DNA of 64,000 nucleotides from Verrucomicrobiota bacterium (GTDB lineage: Bacteria; Verrucomicrobiota; Verrucomicrobiia; Limisphaerales; J093), in contig JAKLFY010000024.1 in assembly GCA_022710935.1 (NCBI GenBank), forward strand, positions 1 to 64,000, read 5' to 3'. Positions 1,111 to 28,772 of this stretch are shown here, piece by piece. The translations under genes and the position numbers were made by a program. The first letter of the stretch is position 1; each line of letters begins with the position of its first letter. Below the pieces are notes generated by a model. The model was not told the DNA's origin. It did no database searches and worked only from the letters and a program-made list of their open reading frames with translations.

Positions 1111-4100
1111 ATGCGCCTGCCCCTGCTACTCATGCTGACGCCGCTGGTGGTTCGAACGGTGATTGGATCGACCGCGGCCTCCGAACCCCCGCCAACCCCG
1201 CGCGCCGCCGTCTGGCAAGGCGACGCGACTTCCGAAAACAGAGGGTTTGCCCGCGAGATTGGGCGGCTGGTGCAGAGTGCCGGCTGGGAGATCGAATTCC
1301 TCGACAGCGCGGCCCTGACCAATGTCACGCAGTTGACGGCGGATCGCTACGGACTCCTGGTTCTCCCCGGCGCCCGCCGCCTGCCGATGGAGAGCATCGC
1401 CTCGATTCAGTCCTACCTCGGGGCCGGCGGCGACATGATCGCCCTCGGTCTGCCGGCCTGGGACACGCCCGTGTTCAGCCTGGGCGACCGTTGGATGACC
1501 CGAGGCGAATACGAGGGCGCACTCGCCGATCAGAAGCCCCGGCGGTACTTGCTCCGGTTCGCGCCCGAACCCCAGACCCAAAACCAGCCGCCCGACACAT
1601 CCCGGATCGAGCCGGCACCGGTGCCGACCGATTCCGCCGCGCTCGAACTCTGGAGCCGGCACACAAACCTCCCGGACGCGCGCGCTGTGCGCACGGTGGA
1701 TAAGGGTCAAAACGGCGGCGCGCTGCACGTCACCCTGGATCGCCTCGAGGGCTGGGAGACTCTCGAGCCGCCGTCCCAGGCCTGGCCCTTTGCTCCCGAT
1801 CATACCCTCACTTGTTTCGAGGCCAAAGGCAGCGCCAACACCCGTCAACTGGCGGTCGAGTGGATCGAGCAGGACGGCTCGCGTTGGATTGCCACCGTCG
1901 ACCTCGCCCCGGAATGGCGCCGCTACGCCCTGCCCCCCGAGTCGTTCCGACCCTGGCAGCCTCCAGCGGGCCGAGGAGGCGCGGGCGATCGGGTCAACCT
2001 CGGCCGGTTGGCCCGCTTCACGCTGGGCCTGGCGCTGACCCACACGAGCGTCGAACCCGGAAAGCAGGAGTACTGGTTCGCCAATCTGGGCACCGCGCCA
2101 AATCCCTTCGGCGCCGCATCCGCCCCCGCAACCCTCCCCGTGCCCCGAATCGAATCCTTCGCGCCGGACTCCGTGGTCTATCCAGTCGGCACCGCGGTGA
2201 CAATCCGCCCGCCGCACTGGCAGGCACTGCTCGGCTCGAACAGCCCGGATGCCGCCCAAACCGGCGCGGCGGCGGTCGATGGCGTCGCCATCCCTGCCGG
2301 CCAATCGCTCGTGGCGATGCATCCGCGCCCCCGCGGTATCGGCTTTGACCAGGATCGCCCCTATCGCTGGCAGCCCATTCTCGAAGCGCTGGACCTCGAG
2401 ACATCGGACTTCCGGGGAACCATGGCGGCGCTGATTGCGCACCTCAAACCGCCGTATCGCGACAGTGTCTGGGCACTCTTCACCCCGGGCGATCCCGCGT
2501 TCTATCGCCAACCGGCGGTCGCCGGCTGGATCGAGCAGATGGCACGCCGGCTGCGCACACCCGTCTACCTGGCCGAGGGCGGCAGTCAGTTCTTCACCCT
2601 GTTTCCAGATCAGACGGCGCCGATCGGCGCGCGCGTGGCGAATGTGGGAGGGCGCGCCGCAGCGAACCTGCAAGTCGTCCTGACCGTGAGCGACAGAGGC
2701 CTCGGGACCCCGATCCACCTTCACCAGCAGGCGCTGAACGTCGAGGCTCATGGGACGGCGATCGTGACAAATGCATGGACTCCGGGTCCGTGGCCCGAGC
2801 AAGGCTGCGTCGTCGCGGCCCAACTGCTGGCGGACAACCGGGTCATCGACGAACTGCGCCACGATTTGAACCGCTGGCAACCGAAGGCCGAGCCCGAGTT
2901 CCTCGAAGCGCGCGACGGCGCCTTCTGGATCGCGGGGCGGCGGTGGAAGGCCCATGGCGTGAATTACATGCCCTCCTCGGGCATCGGGGTCGTCAGCGCG
3001 TTTTTCGAGTACTGGCTGGGCCGCGGAGCATACGATCCCGAGGTGATCGGACGCGATCTGCGGCGCATCAAGGCGATGGGCCTCAATTCCATCAGCGCGT
3101 TCGTCTACCATCGCGACCTGCGCGCCCAGCACCTGCTCGATCTGCTCTTCCAATGCGAACAACTCGATCTCAAGGTCAATCTCTCGCTCCGGCCCGGCAC
3201 GCCCATGGACTTTCGATGGGACGAAATGCGCGCCCTCATCGAGCATTACCGCATCGCGCGCAACGACACGGTCATCGCCTACGACCTCGCCTGGGAACCG
3301 AGCCACTACGATCAGCGCCATCAGCAACGCCACTACACGCAAGCCTGGGCGGATTGGGTGCGCCGCCGCCACGGTTCCCCCGCCCAGGCTCTCGAAGCCT
3401 GGGGCGAACAAAGCACAGACTCCCGCCCCTCGACGCCGAGCACCGACAACACCGCGGACGTGCCCGTGCCCGCGATGTCCGAACTGACCCGGGACGGCCC
3501 GTGGCGCAGGCGCGTCGCCGATTACCGCGCCTTCCTCGACGAACTGCTGGCCGGCAAATACGCCGAGGCGGGCCGCCTGGTCCGATCGATCGACCCGAAT
3601 CACCCCGTCAGTTTTCGAATGCAGCACGCGGGCGACCCCACCTACAATGCCGAGGGGATGCTGCCCTATGATTTCTACGGCCTGCGCGACGCCGTGGACA
3701 TTTGGGAACCCGAGGCGTACGGACGCATTGGCGACTGGGAGCGCGTCAAGCCGGGCCACTTCACCGCCGCCTACGCCCGCCTCTGCGATCCGGCCAAACC
3801 GGTCCTCTGGTCCGAGATGGGCTACAGCGTCTGGGATCCCCAACGCCGCGCGCCCGATCGAGGCAGGCTCGAGTTCGCCGCGCGCTATTACCGGGACTTC
3901 TACCGCATGCTGCGCGAGTCGGGCGCGGACGGCGTCTTCTTCTGGTGGTACCCCGGGGGCTACCGGGCGAATGAAAACAGCGACTTCGGCATTCTCCATC
4001 CCGACGGCACCGACCGCCCCGTCACCCGCGCGATCCGTGACGCGGGGCCGGCGTTTCTCGCCGCGCCAAAGCCGCCGCCGCCCACCCATTGGATCACGGT

Positions 4101-4227
4101 GGACCGCGACCGCGATGCGCGCGGCCTGCACGGAATCTACGAGTCGGTCAAAACCGAGTACTGGAGCATCGTCGAGGCCAGTGGCCAGGCCGGCCTCAGA
4201 TGGAAACGAACACCCGGCACGCGCTAA
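1111..4227 (+). CDS. Large exported glycoside-hydrolase-like protein (TIM barrel)
   Basis: This is a 1038-residue protein with a signal peptide (about residues 1-24, MRLPLLLMLTPLVV then a small-residue cleavage site). Residues 30-130 look like a class-I amidotransferase/ThuA-like fold (YGLLVLPGARRLP). A beta-sandwich, carbohydrate-binding-like stretch follows near 180-310. The C-terminal third reads as a beta/alpha barrel of the cellulase/GH2/GH42 type, with WEPS (E729) as candidate acid/base and LWSEMGYS (E902) as candidate nucleophile. It probably hydrolyses a glycan in the periplasm or outside the cell; the substrate cannot be told. Its TAA stop is the first three bases of a palindromic repeat (4225-4295). 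A 1064-1095 segment upstream resembles the repeat found near 12540. Confidence 0.8.
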   Translation: MRLPLLLMLTPLVVRTVIGSTAASEPPPTPRAAVWQGDATSENRGFAREIGRLVQSAGWEIEFLDSAALTNVTQLTADRYGLLVLPGARRLPMESIASIQSYLGAGGDMIALGLPAWDTPVFSLGDRWMTRGEYEGALADQKPRRYLLRFAPEPQTQNQPPDTSRIEPAPVPTDSAALELWSRHTNLPDARAVRTVDKGQNGGALHVTLDRLEGWETLEPPSQAWPFAPDHTLTCFEAKGSANTRQLAVEWIEQDGSRWIATVDLAPEWRRYALPPESFRPWQPPAGRGGAGDRVNLGRLARFTLGLALTHTSVEPGKQEYWFANLGTAPNPFGAASAPATLPVPRIESFAPDSVVYPVGTAVTIRPPHWQALLGSNSPDAAQTGAAAVDGVAIPAGQSLVAMHPRPRGIGFDQDRPYRWQPILEALDLETSDFRGTMAALIAHLKPPYRDSVWALFTPGDPAFYRQPAVAGWIEQMARRLRTPVYLAEGGSQFFTLFPDQTAPIGARVANVGGRAAANLQVVLTVSDRGLGTPIHLHQQALNVEAHGTAIVTNAWTPGPWPEQGCVVAAQLLADNRVIDELRHDLNRWQPKAEPEFLEARDGAFWIAGRRWKAHGVNYMPSSGIGVVSAFFEYWLGRGAYDPEVIGRDLRRIKAMGLNSISAFVYHRDLRAQHLLDLLFQCEQLDLKVNLSLRPGTPMDFRWDEMRALIEHYRIARNDTVIAYDLAWEPSHYDQRHQQRHYTQAWADWVRRRHGSPAQALEAWGEQSTDSRPSTPSTDNTADVPVPAMSELTRDGPWRRRVADYRAFLDELLAGKYAEAGRLVRSIDPNHPVSFRMQHAGDPTYNAEGMLPYDFYGLRDAVDIWEPEAYGRIGDWERVKPGHFTAAYARLCDPAKPVLWSEMGYSVWDPQRRAPDRGRLEFAARYYRDFYRMLRESGADGVFFWWYPGGYRANENSDFGILHPDGTDRPVTRAIRDAGPAFLAAPKPPPPTHWITVDRDRDARGLHGIYESVKTEYWSIVEASGQAGLRWKRTPGTR

Positions 4228-4295: not shown

Positions 4296-4393
4296 AAGCC
4301 GCTCGATTTTAATTAAACAGTACTTGACAGTGTCGTCCTTCGCAGGCAGTGTGGTCCGCGATGGATGCCCCGCGCATTTGACCGGACGTTGTT

Positions 4394-4795
4394 ATGGGAT
4401 CAGGAACGGAGACGATGACGCTGGTGGAGTTGGCCGAACGGTCCGGTGTGCCGGGGCGAACCATTCGGTTCTATGTCAGTCGCGGGCTCCTGCCCGGCCC
4501 GGTCAAGGCCGGTCGCGGGGCGACTTACGGAGAGGAGCATCTGCGGCGGTTGCGGGAGATTGCGAGCCTTCAAGCGGCGGGGCTGACGCTGGGGGAGATC
4601 GCGGGGCGCCTGGGCGGCGGGCGGGACGGGATCGAGCGTCTGGAGGCGGCGGCCTGGTGGGAATACCGGGTTGCGGCGGACGTCTCGGTGCATGTTCGGG
4701 CGGGGATCAGCCCGTGGCGCCTGCGGCAGATCAGGAAGCATGTGGCGGACATGGTCTCGGGCCTCCGGAAACAAGAAAGCGAGGAACGATCATGA
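4394..4795 (+). CDS. MerR-family transcriptional regulator
   Basis: This 133-residue protein opens with a MerR winged helix-turn-helix (residues 8-75: MTLVELAERSGVPGRTIRFY, then the wing RGLLPGP and a YGEEHLRRL helix). It lacks the cysteines of metal-sensing MerR proteins and ends in a short basic/helical tail, so the ligand is unknown. An alternative start is the ATG at 4415, which fits the domain edge better. The stop overlaps the ATG of the VIT/VWA gene as ATGA, so the pair is translationally coupled. A TTGACA hexamer (4324-4329) and a 9-bp palindrome GACAGTGTC (4326-4334) lie upstream and could be promoter and operator; no convincing -10 was seen. Confidence 0.88.
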   Translation: MGSGTETMTLVELAERSGVPGRTIRFYVSRGLLPGPVKAGRGATYGEEHLRRLREIASLQAAGLTLGEIAGRLGGGRDGIERLEAAAWWEYRVAADVSVHVRAGISPWRLRQIRKHVADMVSGLRKQESEERS

Positions 4796-7170
4796 ATGAC
4801 GAAGCGAGCGGATTCACGGTGTTGGATGTCAAGACCGGCCAGGCGGCGCCGCTGGCCATGGAAGGGCTCTGGCTGGCCGGGCGGGTGCTGCCGGTTGGAG
4901 CGCGTCTCCTGGTGGTTCACACCTTTCGTTCAGCGGAGGCGCGACCACTCGAAGTCGTGTACGCGTTCGGGTTGCCCCGGGATGCGGCCTTGAGGCGATT
5001 CAGGATTGTGGGCGATGGCTTTCAGGTGCGATCCGATCTCCGACGACTCGGGGAGGCGCAGGCGGAGTACGAGCGGGGGATCAGCCAAGGCCACCTGGCG
5101 GCGCTGATGCGGACATACCGGGACGGGCGCGTCAACCTGAGCGTGGGGAACATCCGCCCGGGCGAATTGGTGAAAGTCTATCTGGAACTGGTGGCGGGGG
5201 TGGATCTGAGCGATGACGGGTTGCGTTTCCGTTTTCCATTCACTCTGGCGCCCTGCTACCACCGCGGCGCCCGCGCAGTCGAGATCGAGCCCGGGGCGGG
5301 TGAGATGGAGCTGCCGGAGGCGGAGTTTGGGGACTTGCTCCTGCCGCGGTATCTGACCGACACGGGCGCCCTGCACAGCGTCGGTTTCGATTTGTCTGTC
5401 GGAGGGGGCGGCGCGATTGGCGCCGTGGGTTCGCCCTCTCACGCCCTGCGCATCGCGAATCTCGGGACGGACGATGTGCGCGTCGGTTTGAGCCGGGAGA
5501 AGGACGTGCCCGACCGCGACCTGGTGCTGGACATTCGCATGAGGCAGGCGGCGACCCGGTTTTCCGGGGGGCGCTGCCGCGACGGCAAGGCCCGGTTCAC
5601 GGCGGTGGTCCCATCGACACTCCTGGGCAAGGCCCCGCGGACATCGAAGTCCGTGGTGTTTGTCCTCGATCGCTCGGGGTCGATGGCGGGGCCGGCCATC
5701 GAGCAGGCGAAGAAGGCGGTCGAGGCGTGCCTTGGAACGCTCGGGGAGTCGGATCGTTTTGGGTTTGTGGCTTTCGACGACCAGGCGGATCTGTTCGCGC
5801 CCAGCCTGGCACACGCAAGCATCGAGAACCGTCAACTCTTGCGCCAATTCCTGCTCGGGATCGACGCGCGCGGCGGGACGGAACTGGGTCAGGGCCTTCG
5901 GGAGGCGGTTCGATTGGCCGGTGCGGACCGCGTCGAGCTGATTCTGATCACGGACGGACAGGTGGCTGGGACCGAGGATCTGCTGGGACAGGTCCAGGCT
6001 GCCGGCGCGCGGCTGCATTGCCTGGGCATCGGCGCGGCCAGTCAGGACCGTTTCCTCACGCTGTTGGCCCGCACCTCCGGGGGCGTCAGCCGCTTTCCGA
6101 CCCCGCGCGAGCGTGTGGACACGGCGGCATTGGATCTGTTTGCGGCGATTGGCGCGCCGGTGGCGTCGGACGTTCAGGTGGATTTCGGCGAACTTCCGGG
6201 CGGGCGCGGCATCCTGAAGACCGTGTCGAGTGTTTACGCGGGGCATCCTCTCGTCGTGATGGGCGAAACCTCTGGCGAGGCAAGAGGGAGCCTGCGCGTC
6301 ACCTGGAACAGCGGAGGCAGTGCCGGTGAACTTCGGGTGGATCTGCAACCCAGCCGAGATTGCGAGGCGGAGACTGTGCGATTGCTGCAAGGGGCGCGCT
6401 TGATCACCGAACTCGAATCGGGCGTGAGAGGAGAATGGCCGGCCAACCCGCAGCGCGCGGAGGCCAAACGTGAGGATCGCCGGCTAATCGAAAAGTTGGA
6501 GGCGACGAGCCTCGAGTATGGCCTGGCCAGCCGAGCCATGGCTTTGGTGGCGATCGTCGAGCGTCAGGGTGACGACGCCTCCCAGGTGCCAACGACGCGC
6601 GTGGTGCCGCTCGGCATGCCCCAGGATGTGGCGTTCAAGAGCTACTTCATGGCGGCCTCGGGCCCTCCGGGCGCGGCGGGACGGATGGCGCAGGACTTCG
6701 CGCTGAGATGCGCACCCCCAAGTCATTTCGCGGACATCCGATGCGCATTTCTCAGGTTCCCACGCCCCGGCATGCCGACGGAGAGTTTAAACACAGTCGA
6801 CGATCGGCTTGTGGACTTCGCCGTGCGTTTACAGCCCGACGGAGGCATGCCGGGACAAACCGATGGCGAGCGCGTGGTGCGAACGCTGATCCTGTTGGTC
6901 GCGTTCCTGGCATTTGGGCACACCAGCCGGAGCGGCCCGTTCCGCCTGCATGTGCAAAAGATGGTCTCGTTCCTCAAACAGCAACTGCCAAACGCGGTTC
7001 CGACCGAGCGCCGGGAACCGATCGCGCGGATGCTGGCCAACGTCGAAGCCGGCGGGTCCTGCACCCTGCGGAAGCCGGAGGCGGCCTTGGACCTGCTCGG
7101 ATCGTCCCGTGCGATCGACTGGCCGGCGTGGGAAGCAATCGAAAAGGGGATCGCCGCGCCGACTCCGTGA
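4792..7170 (+). CDS. VIT and von Willebrand A domain protein
   Basis: This is a 792-residue protein without a signal peptide. Residues 1-130 form a VIT (vault/inter-alpha-trypsin) domain: PLEVVYAFGLPRDAALRRF and the typical QAEYERGISQGHLAAL helix. Residues 285-450 are a VWA domain with an apparently complete MIDAS: D293-R-S-G-S297, T363 in RGGTELGQGL, and D388 in LITDG. The C-terminal part has an AVRLQPDGGMPGQ segment, like the tail of VWA5A-type proteins. A metal-dependent protein-protein interaction role is likely; the partner is unknown. It starts at the ATG overlapping the merR stop, since upstream in-frame sequence lies inside merR. VIT-VWA proteins are common in Verrucomicrobiota, but the one-to-one coupling to a MerR regulator is notable. 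Confidence 0.92.
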   Translation: MNDEASGFTVLDVKTGQAAPLAMEGLWLAGRVLPVGARLLVVHTFRSAEARPLEVVYAFGLPRDAALRRFRIVGDGFQVRSDLRRLGEAQAEYERGISQGHLAALMRTYRDGRVNLSVGNIRPGELVKVYLELVAGVDLSDDGLRFRFPFTLAPCYHRGARAVEIEPGAGEMELPEAEFGDLLLPRYLTDTGALHSVGFDLSVGGGGAIGAVGSPSHALRIANLGTDDVRVGLSREKDVPDRDLVLDIRMRQAATRFSGGRCRDGKARFTAVVPSTLLGKAPRTSKSVVFVLDRSGSMAGPAIEQAKKAVEACLGTLGESDRFGFVAFDDQADLFAPSLAHASIENRQLLRQFLLGIDARGGTELGQGLREAVRLAGADRVELILITDGQVAGTEDLLGQVQAAGARLHCLGIGAASQDRFLTLLARTSGGVSRFPTPRERVDTAALDLFAAIGAPVASDVQVDFGELPGGRGILKTVSSVYAGHPLVVMGETSGEARGSLRVTWNSGGSAGELRVDLQPSRDCEAETVRLLQGARLITELESGVRGEWPANPQRAEAKREDRRLIEKLEATSLEYGLASRAMALVAIVERQGDDASQVPTTRVVPLGMPQDVAFKSYFMAASGPPGAAGRMAQDFALRCAPPSHFADIRCAFLRFPRPGMPTESLNTVDDRLVDFAVRLQPDGGMPGQTDGERVVRTLILLVAFLAFGHTSRSGPFRLHVQKMVSFLKQQLPNAVPTERREPIARMLANVEAGGSCTLRKPEAALDLLGSSRAIDWPAWEAIEKGIAAPTP

Positions 7171-7285: not shown

Positions 7286-9175
7286 ATGAATCTCCGCGTG
7301 TTGTGGCTCGGAATGATGATTGTCCTGCCGGCGCTCTCAGGAGCCCCGGCGCCCGCGCAGGTCAAGACCTTCGACGCGCGCTCCTATCGGCGCATTGATG
7401 TCCGGGACCCGGCGCAGGCCCGTCGCGCGTGGGATGCCCTTCATCTGCTCGCCGCCCTGCAGGGCCTGGCCAATCGCGACGCGCCGCGTTTCTACGTCTT
7501 GTTCGCGCAGGACTTTCAGGTTGATACAGATCAATTCTGGCTTGACTGGCTGCGCGGGGAGGACGGCTGGCTCAAGGACACGCTGCCGCAACCGGTTGCC
7601 GACATCGATGCCGCGCTGGCCGCCTTGAGACCGCACTACACCGGGCTCGTGGTCTACGATCCGAATGTGCCAGCCACCGCATGCGTCGCGTCGACCGCGG
7701 CCGGGTGTGAGCGGCTCCTGCCGGTGCGCTACGATCCGTCTCCCGACTCGCTCTTCACCCGCTGCGCGCGCACACTCGACCTGCCGGTCGGCCTCTGGCT
7801 GGTCCATCCCGACGGCTCGAGCAAGTTCACCGGCTCGGGTCAGATTCCGGACTCGGCCAAGCCGTCGTCGGGAAGCGCGAAAATCGACGCGTACCGCTGG
7901 GCTGCCGCGCGCTACCTCGCAACGGGCCGATGCGATCCGCGTTTTGCGGCGTATTACATGGATGCCGACTGGCTGCGGCGCCCGGGCAATGCGCCGGCGG
8001 ACAACCACACCCTGCCCAACCACGACTATTTCATTGCCCGTCGCGCCTTCTTCTTCGATCTCTCGCCGTGGGGGGACGAGGCCCCCGTGGACGATCCCGG
8101 ACAATCGGTGGGGCTCGATCGCCGAATGCTTCTTGACCTCCTGCGCGCATTCCACGACGGGACCCGGGGCGGCATCACCAAGATCGGCGGCTTTCCCCCC
8201 TGGCCTTTCAAGTACACAACCCACGGCGGGGCTGGGCGACACCAACCCGTCCCCACCGAATGGGAATTCACCCGGCTCATTTCCCAGTTCAATGCCTACC
8301 ACGAGGCCGACGCCGCCAGCCACGGCGCGATGGCGAACGCCTCCTTCTTTCAGCACTACCCGCTGGCCACTCCCTACCGCCAGCCCAATCCAATCCCGTC
8401 ACGCGCCCAGTGGCAGGCCCGGGGCTATGTGACCCCCGACGGACGGGTCGCGTCGAAGTTGTTCGTCGGGCACTACGTCGGCGACTACGATGCGCCCTCG
8501 TGGCTCTACAAAGCCGTGCCCGCCTTCTTCCGAGATCCCGCTCGGGGACAGGTGCCCCTGGGCTGGGCCTTCGATCCCAACCTGGCCGATCGCGCCCCGC
8601 AGGCGCTGGTCTATGCCTATCGCCATGCCACAACCAATGACTTCTTCATCGCAGGCGACTCCGGCGCCGGGTATCTGAACCCACGCGCCCTCACGGCGCG
8701 TCCCGACTCCGGTTTACCCTCGGGCCTGGCCGCCTGGGAAGCGCACTGCCGGCGCGCCTACGGAGACTGGGGAATGACGATTACCGGTTTCGCCCTCGAT
8801 GGATCGGCCGGCGCGTCCACCGCCACCGAGTTCATGGCTTACAAATCCTTCAGTCCCGATGGCATCGGCACTCACTTCGAGCCTCAGCCGCGCCTGATCG
8901 CCGGAATCCCGACCTGTCCGGAGAAGGACCTTCCCAACGGCGCGGCCGAAGCCGCCGCCCTGATCGCCCGACGCGCGGAAGCTCGCGGTGCGGGCCCGGG
9001 ATTCCTCTGGGCGCGGAGCATCCTGAAGCCGCCCCGGTGGTATGCCGAGGTGTCGGCGCTGCTGCGGGAGCGGCATTCGCACCTGGCAATCGAGGTCGTC
9101 GATCCCTATACGTTCTTCGGGCTGATCCGACTGGCCTTGGACCCCGGCGGCGCGGGAGGCAGCCCGGGCTACTGA
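7286..9175 (+). CDS. GxGYxYP-family exported protein
   Basis: This is a 629-residue protein with a signal peptide (MNLRVLWLGMMIVLPALSGA, cleaved near PAPAQ). The signature motif that names the GxGYxYP family is present as G460-A-G-Y-L-N-P466, and the N-terminal half matches the family's conserved HLLAALQGLANRDAPRFYV segment. The family is widespread in carbohydrate-degrading Bacteroidota and Verrucomicrobiota and is suspected, not proven, to act on glycans. The start is at ATG 7286, because the in-frame sequence before it overlaps the VIT gene and is not protein-like. The gene ends tail to tail with the minus-strand DUF2959 gene, sharing 7 bp (9169-9175). Confidence 0.9.
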   Translation: MNLRVLWLGMMIVLPALSGAPAPAQVKTFDARSYRRIDVRDPAQARRAWDALHLLAALQGLANRDAPRFYVLFAQDFQVDTDQFWLDWLRGEDGWLKDTLPQPVADIDAALAALRPHYTGLVVYDPNVPATACVASTAAGCERLLPVRYDPSPDSLFTRCARTLDLPVGLWLVHPDGSSKFTGSGQIPDSAKPSSGSAKIDAYRWAAARYLATGRCDPRFAAYYMDADWLRRPGNAPADNHTLPNHDYFIARRAFFFDLSPWGDEAPVDDPGQSVGLDRRMLLDLLRAFHDGTRGGITKIGGFPPWPFKYTTHGGAGRHQPVPTEWEFTRLISQFNAYHEADAASHGAMANASFFQHYPLATPYRQPNPIPSRAQWQARGYVTPDGRVASKLFVGHYVGDYDAPSWLYKAVPAFFRDPARGQVPLGWAFDPNLADRAPQALVYAYRHATTNDFFIAGDSGAGYLNPRALTARPDSGLPSGLAAWEAHCRRAYGDWGMTITGFALDGSAGASTATEFMAYKSFSPDGIGTHFEPQPRLIAGIPTCPEKDLPNGAAEAAALIARRAEARGAGPGFLWARSILKPPRWYAEVSALLRERHSHLAIEVVDPYTFFGLIRLALDPGGAGGSPGY

Positions 9176-14555: not shown

Positions 14556-15467
14556 GTCCCCGGCCACCATCGTCCACATGCCTCTCGGCGCGTTGGTGGT
14601 CCCGCGACCGACGGTTTCGGTGACTTTATGAATCGACACATGGCCGTCGTGAAAGAGGTAGTTGAAGCGCCGTGCGTGCAATCCGTAAGCAGCCAGGCCG
14701 TAACCGATGGCATTGAATGACGTGGCGCGCCCGAGTTGGACGCAATCGGGGGTCAGATTCCCGGGCACTCCATAGCCCGGGCCAGCGCAAAACGACGGCC
14801 AGTCGTTGCCGGCCGCGTTGCGGCCGTTGGGCAACTCCGCCAGCAGGATCGTTCCGGCGGGATCTTCGACCGCACTCTCCTTGTAGCCCCGCGGTTCCCA
14901 GTCGGGCAGTGCGCCCGGCGCGCTCCCGCGCAGGTTATAATACAGGCCCACCCCGTATTGAGCCGGAGGCAGCCCGGACGTCCCGGACGTCAGAATGAAG
15001 GACGGCCCGGCCCAGTTCAGGGCGTAGGTGCGGCGACGGCTGAATGAAGCGTACTCGATGCTGATCTCGATGCGGTCGGCGGGGCACTTGAGAATCTTGG
15101 GGATGGTGCCGGGATCGGCGACGGCGCCCGAAATGCCGAGGATCAGATCCGCCTCCGGGGCGGTTCCGCCGATGTACCTGTGGATGTAATCGTCCCACGA
15201 CAACTGGTACTGGAAATCGCCCGTCGAGTAGGCGGCGGGCGGGTACTGATCGTCGCGCTCGGCCGAGAACAGGGCGAACCCGAGTCCGAGCTGCTTCATC
15301 TGGGCGGTGCATTTGAGCCGTTGCGCGCGGGACTTGGCGCCCGAGAGCGCCGGCAGCAAAAGGCTGGCCAGGATGGCGATGATCGCGATGACGACCAGAA
15401 GCTCGATCAACGTGAACGCGAGCATCCCCCGGGCGGGCGTCGCCAACGCGCCTTCCTCGCGCCTCAT
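14553..15467 (-). CDS. Type II pseudopilin-like protein with H-X9-DG motif
   Basis: This is a 304-residue protein with a class-III signal: RG^[23 protein letters not shown] is a prepilin peptidase site followed by the N-methylation/assembly helix. The C-terminal [12 protein letters not shown] fits the H-X9-DG signature of the large prepilin-like families of Verrucomicrobiota and Planctomycetota. These are surface or periplasmic proteins of mostly unknown role; many copies per genome are usual. The start at MRREEG (15467) gives a short leader; a longer leader from 15539 is possible. The stop is provided by a repeat arm. The FAD oxidoreductase follows on the same strand after about 60 bp. Confidence 0.9.
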
Positions 15468-28032: not shown

Positions 28033-28772
28033 CACGGTTTGGATCGGAGCCGGGCGATATTCTTCTCGATGTCGGGCCCCAGATCCTCCTGATAGAAGTA
28101 CGCATCCCGATCCCCGCCGGCGCTCCAACTGTGAATGAAGAGCATCTTCTCGAAGCGAATCCACCGCGCCGAGCCGTCCATGGTCAGCACGTTGCCGCCA
28201 TCCGGAATCCCGCCACGTCCGCGATGCGGCGGCATGTCCTTGAACGCGCTGTCGCGACCGCCGCCCCACTTGCCGTCGATCTTCATGACGGCGTCCGCCG
28301 CCAAAGCCCAGGTGGGCTGGGCGGTCGAGGCCCTGATCGGGCTGCGGGAGTTGAACGTGCCCGCGGGGTTGATCCATTTCGGGATGCCACCGTAGTACTG
28401 ATACCCGATGACCCACTGGGGATACTCCGCTTCGTATGTCGGGAAGGTCGGACGATTGGGACAGGTCCAAATCTGACTGACGGTGCTGTTCGTCGTGATC
28501 GTCAAACCGATCGTGGCGGCCGCGCTGCGCTCGGGCGGATTGAGGCAGATCTGCACCTCGCCATTGCGAGCCTCGATCACCAGGTCATTGTTGTCCCCGG
28601 CGTAGACTGTCATGCCAATGCCAATCTGGCGCAGGTTGTTGAGGCATTTGGCGCGCTTGCCATTCTCCTTCGCTCGAGACAGGGCCGGCAACAGAAGACC
28701 GGCAAGGATCGCGATGATCGCAATCACCACCAGCAACTCGATCAGGGTGAAGGCTGTCTTAACTGGTTTCAT
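28032..28772 (-). CDS. Type II pseudopilin-like protein
   Basis: This 246-residue protein has a short leader MKPVKTA then [28 protein letters not shown], the prepilin signature helix. The usual glycine before the cleavage site is replaced by alanine here (KTA^FTLIEL). The region [14 protein letters not shown] is the conserved follow-up of this superfamily. Near residue 203 a His is followed 15 residues later by Asp-Gly (a longer spacing than the classical H-X9-DG). It overlaps the following URO-D gene by one base, an unusual pairing of an exported assembly-type protein and a cytoplasmic enzyme. Confidence 0.9.

What the first reader, a model, noticed from the sequence alone, without database searches (positions are those of the whole stretch)
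4394..7170. Translationally coupled MerR regulator and VIT/VWA protein
The MerR stop and VIT start overlap as ATGA, and the VWA domain has a complete-looking MIDAS (D293/S295/S297/T363/D388). The MerR lacks metal-binding cysteines. A sensor regulator paired one-to-one with a metal-dependent interaction protein could form a small two-gene regulatory system, with the VWA protein acting as ligand, partner or anti-regulator.
Basis: partly seen in the sequence, partly recalled or inferred. Interest (0 to 1): 0.6.

Follow-up and report, generated by a model that had tools for sequence, protein, structure and literature searches.

The report
Conserved self-regulated MerR–VIT/VWA gene pair
A small DNA-binding regulator and a large cytosolic protein resembling the human vault protein PARP4 sit as one overlapping gene pair in bacteria of at least 16 phyla, behind a DNA switch that controls nothing but the pair itself, which makes it a widespread and, as far as I could find, undescribed bacterial circuit.

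Summary
A MerR-family gene (4394-4795) overlaps a VIT/VWA gene (4792-7170) by ATGA, the MIDAS is complete, and the MerR has no cysteine. The pairing is not local: the same MerR–VIT/VWA order occurs in 70 loci from at least 16 phyla, half of them with the same 1-nt stop/start overlap. No third gene is conserved beside it. The window pair belongs to a small clade otherwise known from Acidobacteriota; most Verrucomicrobiota that have a pair carry a separate clade of it. An exact TTGACA with ACTGT/ACAGT half-sites lies upstream of MerR in 38 of 67 loci (0.02 expected), typically 35-36 nt before the start codon with 17-18-nt promoter spacing, which implies a leaderless, self-repressed promoter. The operator is private: one site per genome wherever the full operator could be searched. 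The best explanation is a GlnR–GlnA-like circuit: MerR represses its own operon, and the co-translated VIT/VWA protein is its output and probably its protein effector. Local autoregulation is well supported; a direct MerR–VIT/VWA contact is inferred and untested. The VIT/VWA protein is closest in sequence to PARP4 and ITIH. I found no paper on the pair.

The parts
4318..4334 (+).
   Evidence: The 17-mer occurs exactly once in the 7.5-Mb genome. (A/G)ACAGTACTTGACAGTGTC or a near copy stands upstream of the five nearest MerR–VIT/VWA pairs, whose VIT/VWA proteins are only 39-49% identical to the window's. General motif: 38/67 loci against 0.02 expected.
4394..4795 (+). MerR-family regulator, 133 aa, no cysteine; alternative start ATG 4415
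   Evidence: Pfam MerR_1 E 7e-17; AF2 model pLDDT 89; VIA Z 10-12 to SoxR, CadR, MtaN and CvkR over residues about 5-75.
4415..4606 (+). MerR winged helix-turn-helix (aa 8-71)
   Evidence: Pfam coordinates.
4655..4789 (+). MerR C-terminal module: beta hairpin (aa 88-102) and helix (aa 107-132), conserved in MerR-linked relatives and joined through a linker of very variable length
   Evidence: AF2 secondary structure; alignments.
4792..4795 (+). ATGA stop/start overlap (translational coupling)
   Evidence: Sequence; 35 of 70 pairs have ATGA or GTGA at this point.
4792..7170 (+). VIT/VWA protein, 792 aa; no secretion or membrane-anchor segment evident
   Evidence: Pfam VIT and VWA; AF2 model pLDDT 84; best PDB sequence match PARP4, E 7.9e-104 with the family profile.
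4891..5187 (+). VIT domain (aa 34-132)
   Evidence: Pfam PF08487.
5650..6096 (+). VWA domain (aa 287-435) with MIDAS D293/S295/S297/T363/D388 (codons starting 5668, 5674, 5680, 5878, 5953)
   Evidence: Pfam PF13768; the five residues are invariant in 40 homologues.
6676..7152 (+). C-terminal helical region (aa 629-787), variable between relatives
   Evidence: AF2 secondary structure; weakly conserved columns in A1.

Best explanation
The pair is a self-contained, autoregulated operon. The MerR protein binds a private operator that overlaps the -35 box and the spacer of its own promoter and represses the operon (supported by conserved DNA footprints, not by experiment). The downstream VIT/VWA protein is made together with MerR by translational coupling and is the only transcriptional output. 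Most likely (inferred) it also serves as MerR's protein effector: ligand bound at the invariant MIDAS or the VIT face decides whether the VIT/VWA protein engages the conserved C-terminal module of MerR and so holds or releases the operator. This would be the logic of GlnR with glutamine synthetase, the product of the second gene of the glnRA operon. When the cytosolic ligand changes, repression is relieved and more of the VIT/VWA scaffold is made.
For: Pairing: MerR directly upstream of VIT/VWA on the same strand in 70 loci, at least 16 phyla, 35 with a 1-nt ATGA/GTGA overlap and 60 within -25..+15 nt. Homologues without the MerR gene fall mainly in a separate, 99%-supported clade that holds no linked pair. 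No third gene family recurs outside the closely related Actinomadura set. Operator: 38/67 loci against 0.02 expected in dinucleotide shuffles; TTGACA lies 35-36 nt before the MerR start in 39 cases; spacer 17-18 nt in 34/48. Private site: one full operator locus in each of six Actinomadura genomes and the exact 17-mer once in the window's genome; a class-wide pattern found 9 sites in 286 genomes, 7 of them at these promoters and 2 inside long reading frames. MerR and VIT/VWA distances correlate at r 0.86 (permutation maximum 0.17). MIDAS is invariant in 40 homologues. Precedent: GlnR is a MerR-family protein with optimally spaced promoters and a glutamine synthetase partner from its own operon (PMC6191146); the CvkR authors raise a protein effector for their coiled-coil-free MerR (PMC9938897).
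Against: No interaction has been predicted or measured. Everything except the contact is equally expected if MerR senses a small molecule and VIT/VWA is only its output. In genome G059 a paralogous MerR of the Verrucomicrobiota type stands before an M48-type protease gene with no VIT/VWA gene near it, so the MerR can work without that partner. In the window the start codon expected from leaderless spacing (4361) runs into an in-frame TGA (4379-4381) and the -10 box is poor, so the window's promoter departs from the family rule. The r of 0.86 shows co-inheritance, not contact.
Confidence: 0.5

Rival explanations
1. MerR is a self-contained sensor of a small molecule or stress, through its C-terminal hairpin-helix module, and represses its operon. 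The VIT/VWA protein is simply the response protein and never touches MerR.
For: Private operator and autoregulatory geometry; conserved C-terminal module in MerR; an orphan MerR paralogue before a protease gene in G059.
Against: Strict one-to-one pairing with stop/start overlap over at least 16 phyla, with no other recurrent target or neighbour, is more than an ordinary effector gene needs. The C-terminal module is small and has no cysteine or recognised ligand-binding domain.
Confidence: 0.38
2. Toxin–antitoxin-like pair: MerR is an autorepressing antitoxin and VIT/VWA the toxin.
For: Operon order, overlap, tight autoregulation, and some copies on plasmids.
Against: The 792-aa protein has VIT, VWA and a tail without any catalytic or toxic domain in Pfam or PADLOC. 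Its nearest solved relatives are scaffold-type PARP4/ITIH regions. A same-genus genome kept only a broken remnant of the large gene, and a search with the MerR found none there, so loss is tolerated.
Confidence: 0.05
3. The VIT/VWA protein is a surface or adhesion protein (sortase-target type) and the MerR neighbour is incidental.
For: NCBIfam TIGR03788 (marine proteobacterial sortase target) is the best named family, 221 bits.
Against: The score is well under the TIGR03788 cut-off of 551.65. No N-terminal signal or C-terminal membrane segment is evident. MerR linkage is conserved, and the unlinked homologues form their own clade.
Confidence: 0.03

Closest known systems
GlnR–GlnA (glnRA operon; GlnR/TnrA branch of the MerR family)
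   Same: MerR-family winged HTH first in an operon with its protein partner; optimally spaced promoter with an inverted repeat; repressor; flexible C-terminal effector region (PMC6191146).
   Different: Different partner (an enzyme, glutamine synthetase, against a VIT/VWA scaffold); GlnR controls many genes, while this operator is private; the GlnR C-terminal tail is not shown to be homologous to the hairpin-helix module here.
CvkR, MerR-type repressor of type V-K CAST
   Same: MerR wHTH (VIA Z 10.3 over 70 residues), repressor, no classical C-terminal coiled coil; its authors consider a protein effector (PMC9938897).
   Different: Regulates cas12k and tnsB; its C-terminal region did not align in the structural comparison, which is inconclusive.
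HspR–DnaK and CbpM–CbpA (MerR-like proteins tied to an operon partner protein)
   Same: A MerR-like protein encoded with its protein partner; the CbpM–CbpA complex 3ucs is among the structural matches. The operon logic of both is from general knowledge, not tested here.
   Different: Chaperone partners; no VIT/VWA.
PARP4, ITIH1/ITIH4 and VWA5A-type VIT-VWA proteins
   Same: VIT followed by VWA with MIDAS; family profile matches PARP4 at E 7.9e-104 and ITIH4 at 1.6e-67; fold match to ITIH1 6fpy at E 1.2e-30. Dictyostelium Vwa1, of this kind, is cytosolic and controls development with an F-box protein (PMC10539598).
   Different: Eukaryotic; no dedicated transcription factor; PARP4 carries an ADP-ribosyltransferase domain (general knowledge) that is absent here.
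ArnA–ArnB, archaeal FHA–vWA regulatory pair
   Same: A vWA protein of the same broad fold (8s05, 5a8j) acting with a partner to repress gene expression (PMC6509490).
   Different: FHA and phosphorylation instead of MerR; no VIT domain was shown.

Membership tests
MerR family of transcription regulators | N-terminal MerR winged HTH | tested here: met
   Pfam MerR_1 61.7 bits against cut-off 21.6; Z 10-12 to known MerR members.
MerR family of transcription regulators | Metal- or redox-sensing cysteines (MerR, CueR and SoxR subfamilies) | tested here: not met
   No cysteine in the protein; all equivalog scores far below cut-off. So it is not filed in those subfamilies.
MerR family of transcription regulators | Classical antiparallel coiled-coil dimerisation helix | tested here: inconclusive
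   The model shows a hairpin plus a helix after the HTH; the C-terminal part is barely tested by the structural search.
Classical MerR activators | Target promoter with over-long 19-20 bp spacer | tested here: not met
   Best -10 at 17-18 nt in 34 of 48 family promoters.
GlnR/GlnA-like autoregulated pair (works like) | Operator overlaps own promoter; operon partner encoded immediately downstream | tested here: met
   (by footprint, not by experiment).
GlnR/GlnA-like autoregulated pair (works like) | Partner protein binds the regulator and changes DNA binding | not testable with these tools
TIGR03788 marine proteobacterial sortase target | Score over the curated cut-off | tested here: not met
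   221.2 bits against 551.65.
TIGR03788 marine proteobacterial sortase target | Signal peptide and C-terminal sorting signal or membrane segment | tested here: not met
   Hydropathy of the last 60 residues at most 0.63; no dedicated signal-peptide predictor was available, and the first 60 residues fold as VIT strands in the model.
VIT-VWA proteins (PARP4/ITIH/VWA5A type) | VIT domain followed by VWA with complete MIDAS | tested here: met
PARP4 | ADP-ribosyltransferase domain | tested here: not met
   No such Pfam hit at E 0.1.
Toxin–antitoxin system | Toxicity of one partner neutralised by the other | not testable with these tools
   No toxin-like domain found.

The most novel reading that the evidence does not exclude
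The pair is an ancient bacterial signalling unit in which a PARP4/VWA5A-like VIT-VWA protein directly controls a dedicated MerR repressor through its MIDAS. That would be a MerR circuit gated by a metal-dependent adhesion-site protein, and the bacterial root of cytosolic VIT-VWA regulators in eukaryotes.
Probability: 0.3. Interest if true: 0.82.

Novelty: new variant of a known kind. Interest (0 to 1): 0.6.

Why it matters
Cytosolic VIT-VWA proteins (PARP4, VWA5A, Dictyostelium Vwa1) have poorly known functions and ligands. A bacterial version with its own one-site repressor gives a built-in reporter: whatever switches the operon on is likely to be, or to report, the protein's physiological input. 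The pair spans at least 16 phyla, has a recognisable operator, and appears to have no published description in the library searched, so a large set of gene pairs of unknown function could be annotated and tested at once.

Tried and rejected
A single-protein scan of genome contigs found nothing; the alignment query found 170 relatives and kept 80. A conserved third gene was looked for and not found outside the Actinomadura set. Other targets of the operator were looked for: next-best sites in the window's genome have 3 mismatches and are near the control level (18 against 10), and two extra class-wide hits lie inside long reading frames. Defence association: only a weak HTH hit to mad1. Phage families: HTH-type hits only. 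A first motif scan with a 50-nt window was cut at the region end for many loci and was replaced. MerR–VIT/VWA gene fusions were not seen in the 70 pairs. CvkR's C-terminal dimerisation region did not appear in the structural alignment. Literature searches for MerR with VIT, vWA or COG2304 gave nothing on this pair.

Full report
OBSERVATION. The MerR gene is 4394-4795 and the VIT/VWA gene is 4792-7170, both on the + strand, overlapping as ATGA at 4792-4795. Pfam supports MerR_1, VIT and VWA well above the curated cut-offs. The MerR has no cysteine, and all MerR equivalog scores (MerR, SoxR, CadR, ZntR, CueR) are far below cut-off. GACAGTGTC is at 4326-4334.

THE NEIGHBOURHOOD SURVEY. In 286 genomes of the class, independent searches with the MerR and with the VIT/VWA protein hit neighbouring genes in several genomes, and inspection gave ten MerR–VIT/VWA pairs. 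A homology scan of named genomes and three plasmid-collection hits gave 83 further VIT/VWA loci. In 59 of these a MerR gene lies directly upstream on the same strand. Inspection added L156, whose MerR my filter had missed, and L082, where the operator and the 3' part of the MerR survive. Several of the remainder begin at a contig edge. Altogether 70 pairs were catalogued, from 16 named phyla, with 35 showing ATGA or GTGA at the junction and 60 starting within -25 to +15 nt of the MerR stop. Public annotation already calls the pair on a Massilia plasmid 'MerR family transcriptional regulator' and 'VIT and VWA domain-containing protein', and on an Aquabacterium plasmid 'helix-turn-helix domain-containing protein' and 'VIT and VWA domain-containing protein', without a function.

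PHYLOGENY. In a tree of 110 VIT/VWA proteins the unlinked homologues from Verrucomicrobiota, Nitrospira and Pseudomonadota form their own supported clade (29 rows, SH-aLRT 99), and MerR-linked proteins make up most of the rest. Support is by SH-aLRT only, and 29 rows have unusual amino-acid composition, so deep relations are unsure. The window protein sits in a fully supported clade of six with Acidobacteriota and one single-cell genome (39-49% identity), apart from the 13-member clade to which the other Verrucomicrobiota pairs belong. A same-genus genome (G135) keeps only two adjoining fragments of the gene at 83% DNA identity (window 6171-6279 and 6841-7046), so the gene was present in the genus and decayed there. 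MerR and VIT/VWA tree distances correlate strongly (r 0.86), as expected for co-inheritance; this does not prove contact.

THE OPERATOR. Upstream of MerR, an exact TTGACA occurs within 130 nt of the HTH in 58 of 67 loci, and TTGACA with at least two ACTGT/ACAGT half-sites occurs in 38 of 67, against 0.02 expected and at most 1 in 200 shuffled sets. TTGACA lies exactly 35-36 nt before a MerR start codon in 39 cases, and the best -10 is 17-18 nt downstream in 34 of 48. The simplest reading is a promoter whose transcript begins at or next to the MerR start codon (leaderless), with the dyad between and over the -35 and -10 boxes, for example TTGACACTGTCATATGACAGTGTTAGATTG in L094. Canonical spacing argues for repression rather than the spacer-distorting activation of classical MerR proteins; PMC6191146 makes the same contrast for GlnR/TnrA. 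The 67 loci include groups of close relatives (ten Actinomadura, for example), so they are not all independent, but the motif spans the phyla listed.

A PRIVATE SITE. The full operator was found once in each of six Actinomadura genomes, at the pair. The window's 17-mer is unique in its genome, and other sites have three mismatches at close to control frequency. A Verrucomicrobiota-type pattern found nine sites in 286 genomes: seven are promoters of these pairs, and two lie inside long reading frames of repeat-rich proteins. Four of the ten genomes gave no match to the Actinomadura-type pattern, because their operators differ from it. So the regulator appears to control only its own operon, with the limit that degenerate sites would be missed.

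THE WINDOW'S OWN PROMOTER is slightly off the rule. The operator is intact, but the start codon that leaderless spacing predicts (ATG 4361) is in the MerR frame and meets TGA at 4379-4381; MerR must start at 4394 or 4415. The -10 at 17 nt (CAGTGT) is poor.

PROTEINS. The MerR model (pLDDT 89) has a standard winged HTH followed by a two-strand hairpin (88-102) and a helix (107-132). The HTH matches many MerR proteins at Z 10-12; the C-terminal module is not covered by these matches, so its fold is open. Across relatives this module is conserved while the linker before it varies from a few to hundreds of residues in Actinomadura, as expected of a tethered docking, sensing or dimerisation unit. 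The VIT/VWA model (pLDDT 84) resembles ITIH1 over about 600 residues. The family profile hits PARP4 at E 7.9e-104 and ITIH4 at 1.6e-67, with the archaeal regulator ArnB further off. No signal peptide or anchor is evident.

MECHANISM. Supported by footprint: a two-gene unit, translational coupling, and a dedicated operator on its own promoter. Inferred: MerR represses; the VIT/VWA protein is the output and, through contact with the MerR C-terminal module, the effector. The closest working model is GlnR–glutamine synthetase, and the CvkR authors raise the same idea for their MerR-type repressor. The main rival is a self-sufficient MerR sensor with VIT/VWA as output. One orphan MerR paralogue before a protease gene gives that rival some weight.

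NOVELTY. Both protein families are known. I found no description of the pair, its operator or its distribution in the open-access library searched, which lacks most subscription journals. I therefore call it a new variant of a known kind, the autoregulated MerR operon with a co-encoded protein partner.

Noticed in passing
G135:C93 (L075 9050-9366): A same-genus genome holds a remnant of the VIT/VWA gene: window segments 6171-6279 and 6841-7046 joined, about 83% DNA identity, with the rest lost. The gene has decayed in a sister species.
   Followed up: yes
L069 7474-8424 (G059:C15): An orphan MerR paralogue of the Verrucomicrobiota pair type, with its own TTGACAGTAAGACTG upstream, is followed by what looks like an M48-family metalloprotease gene and no VIT/VWA gene.
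   Followed up: partly
L131 3911-7078 (Rhodopirellula rubra): The MerR-linked VIT/VWA protein is fused to a C-terminal MshEN domain and part of a type II secretion ATPase domain, hinting at a nucleotide-linked tail in that lineage.
   Followed up: no
window 4361-4418: Between operator and MerR lie a 6-codon ORF in the MerR frame (ATG 4361, TGA 4379) and a 17-codon ORF (ATG 4365) whose TGA overlaps ATG 4415 as ATGA. Possible leader peptide or upstream coupling.
   Followed up: no
L109, L117 and L145 (Actinomadura MerR genes): The MerR carries a very long, low-complexity Pro/Ala/Ser-rich linker (up to about 300 aa) between HTH and the conserved C-terminal module.
   Followed up: no
G000:C219 and G000:C2: The window's genome has three further VIT-domain loci; the only MerR of this type found in the genome is the window's, so these appear unlinked.
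   Followed up: partly
window 15330-15419 and 28671-28754: Two similar stretches (79%) look like the N-terminal methylation/transmembrane segment of PulG-type pilins read on the minus strand, ordinary for this phylum.
   Followed up: partly
window 1111-4227 and 7286-9175: The flanking genes are a 1038-aa protein without any Pfam hit and a GxGYxYP putative glycoside hydrolase; neither recurs beside other MerR–VIT/VWA pairs.
   Followed up: partly
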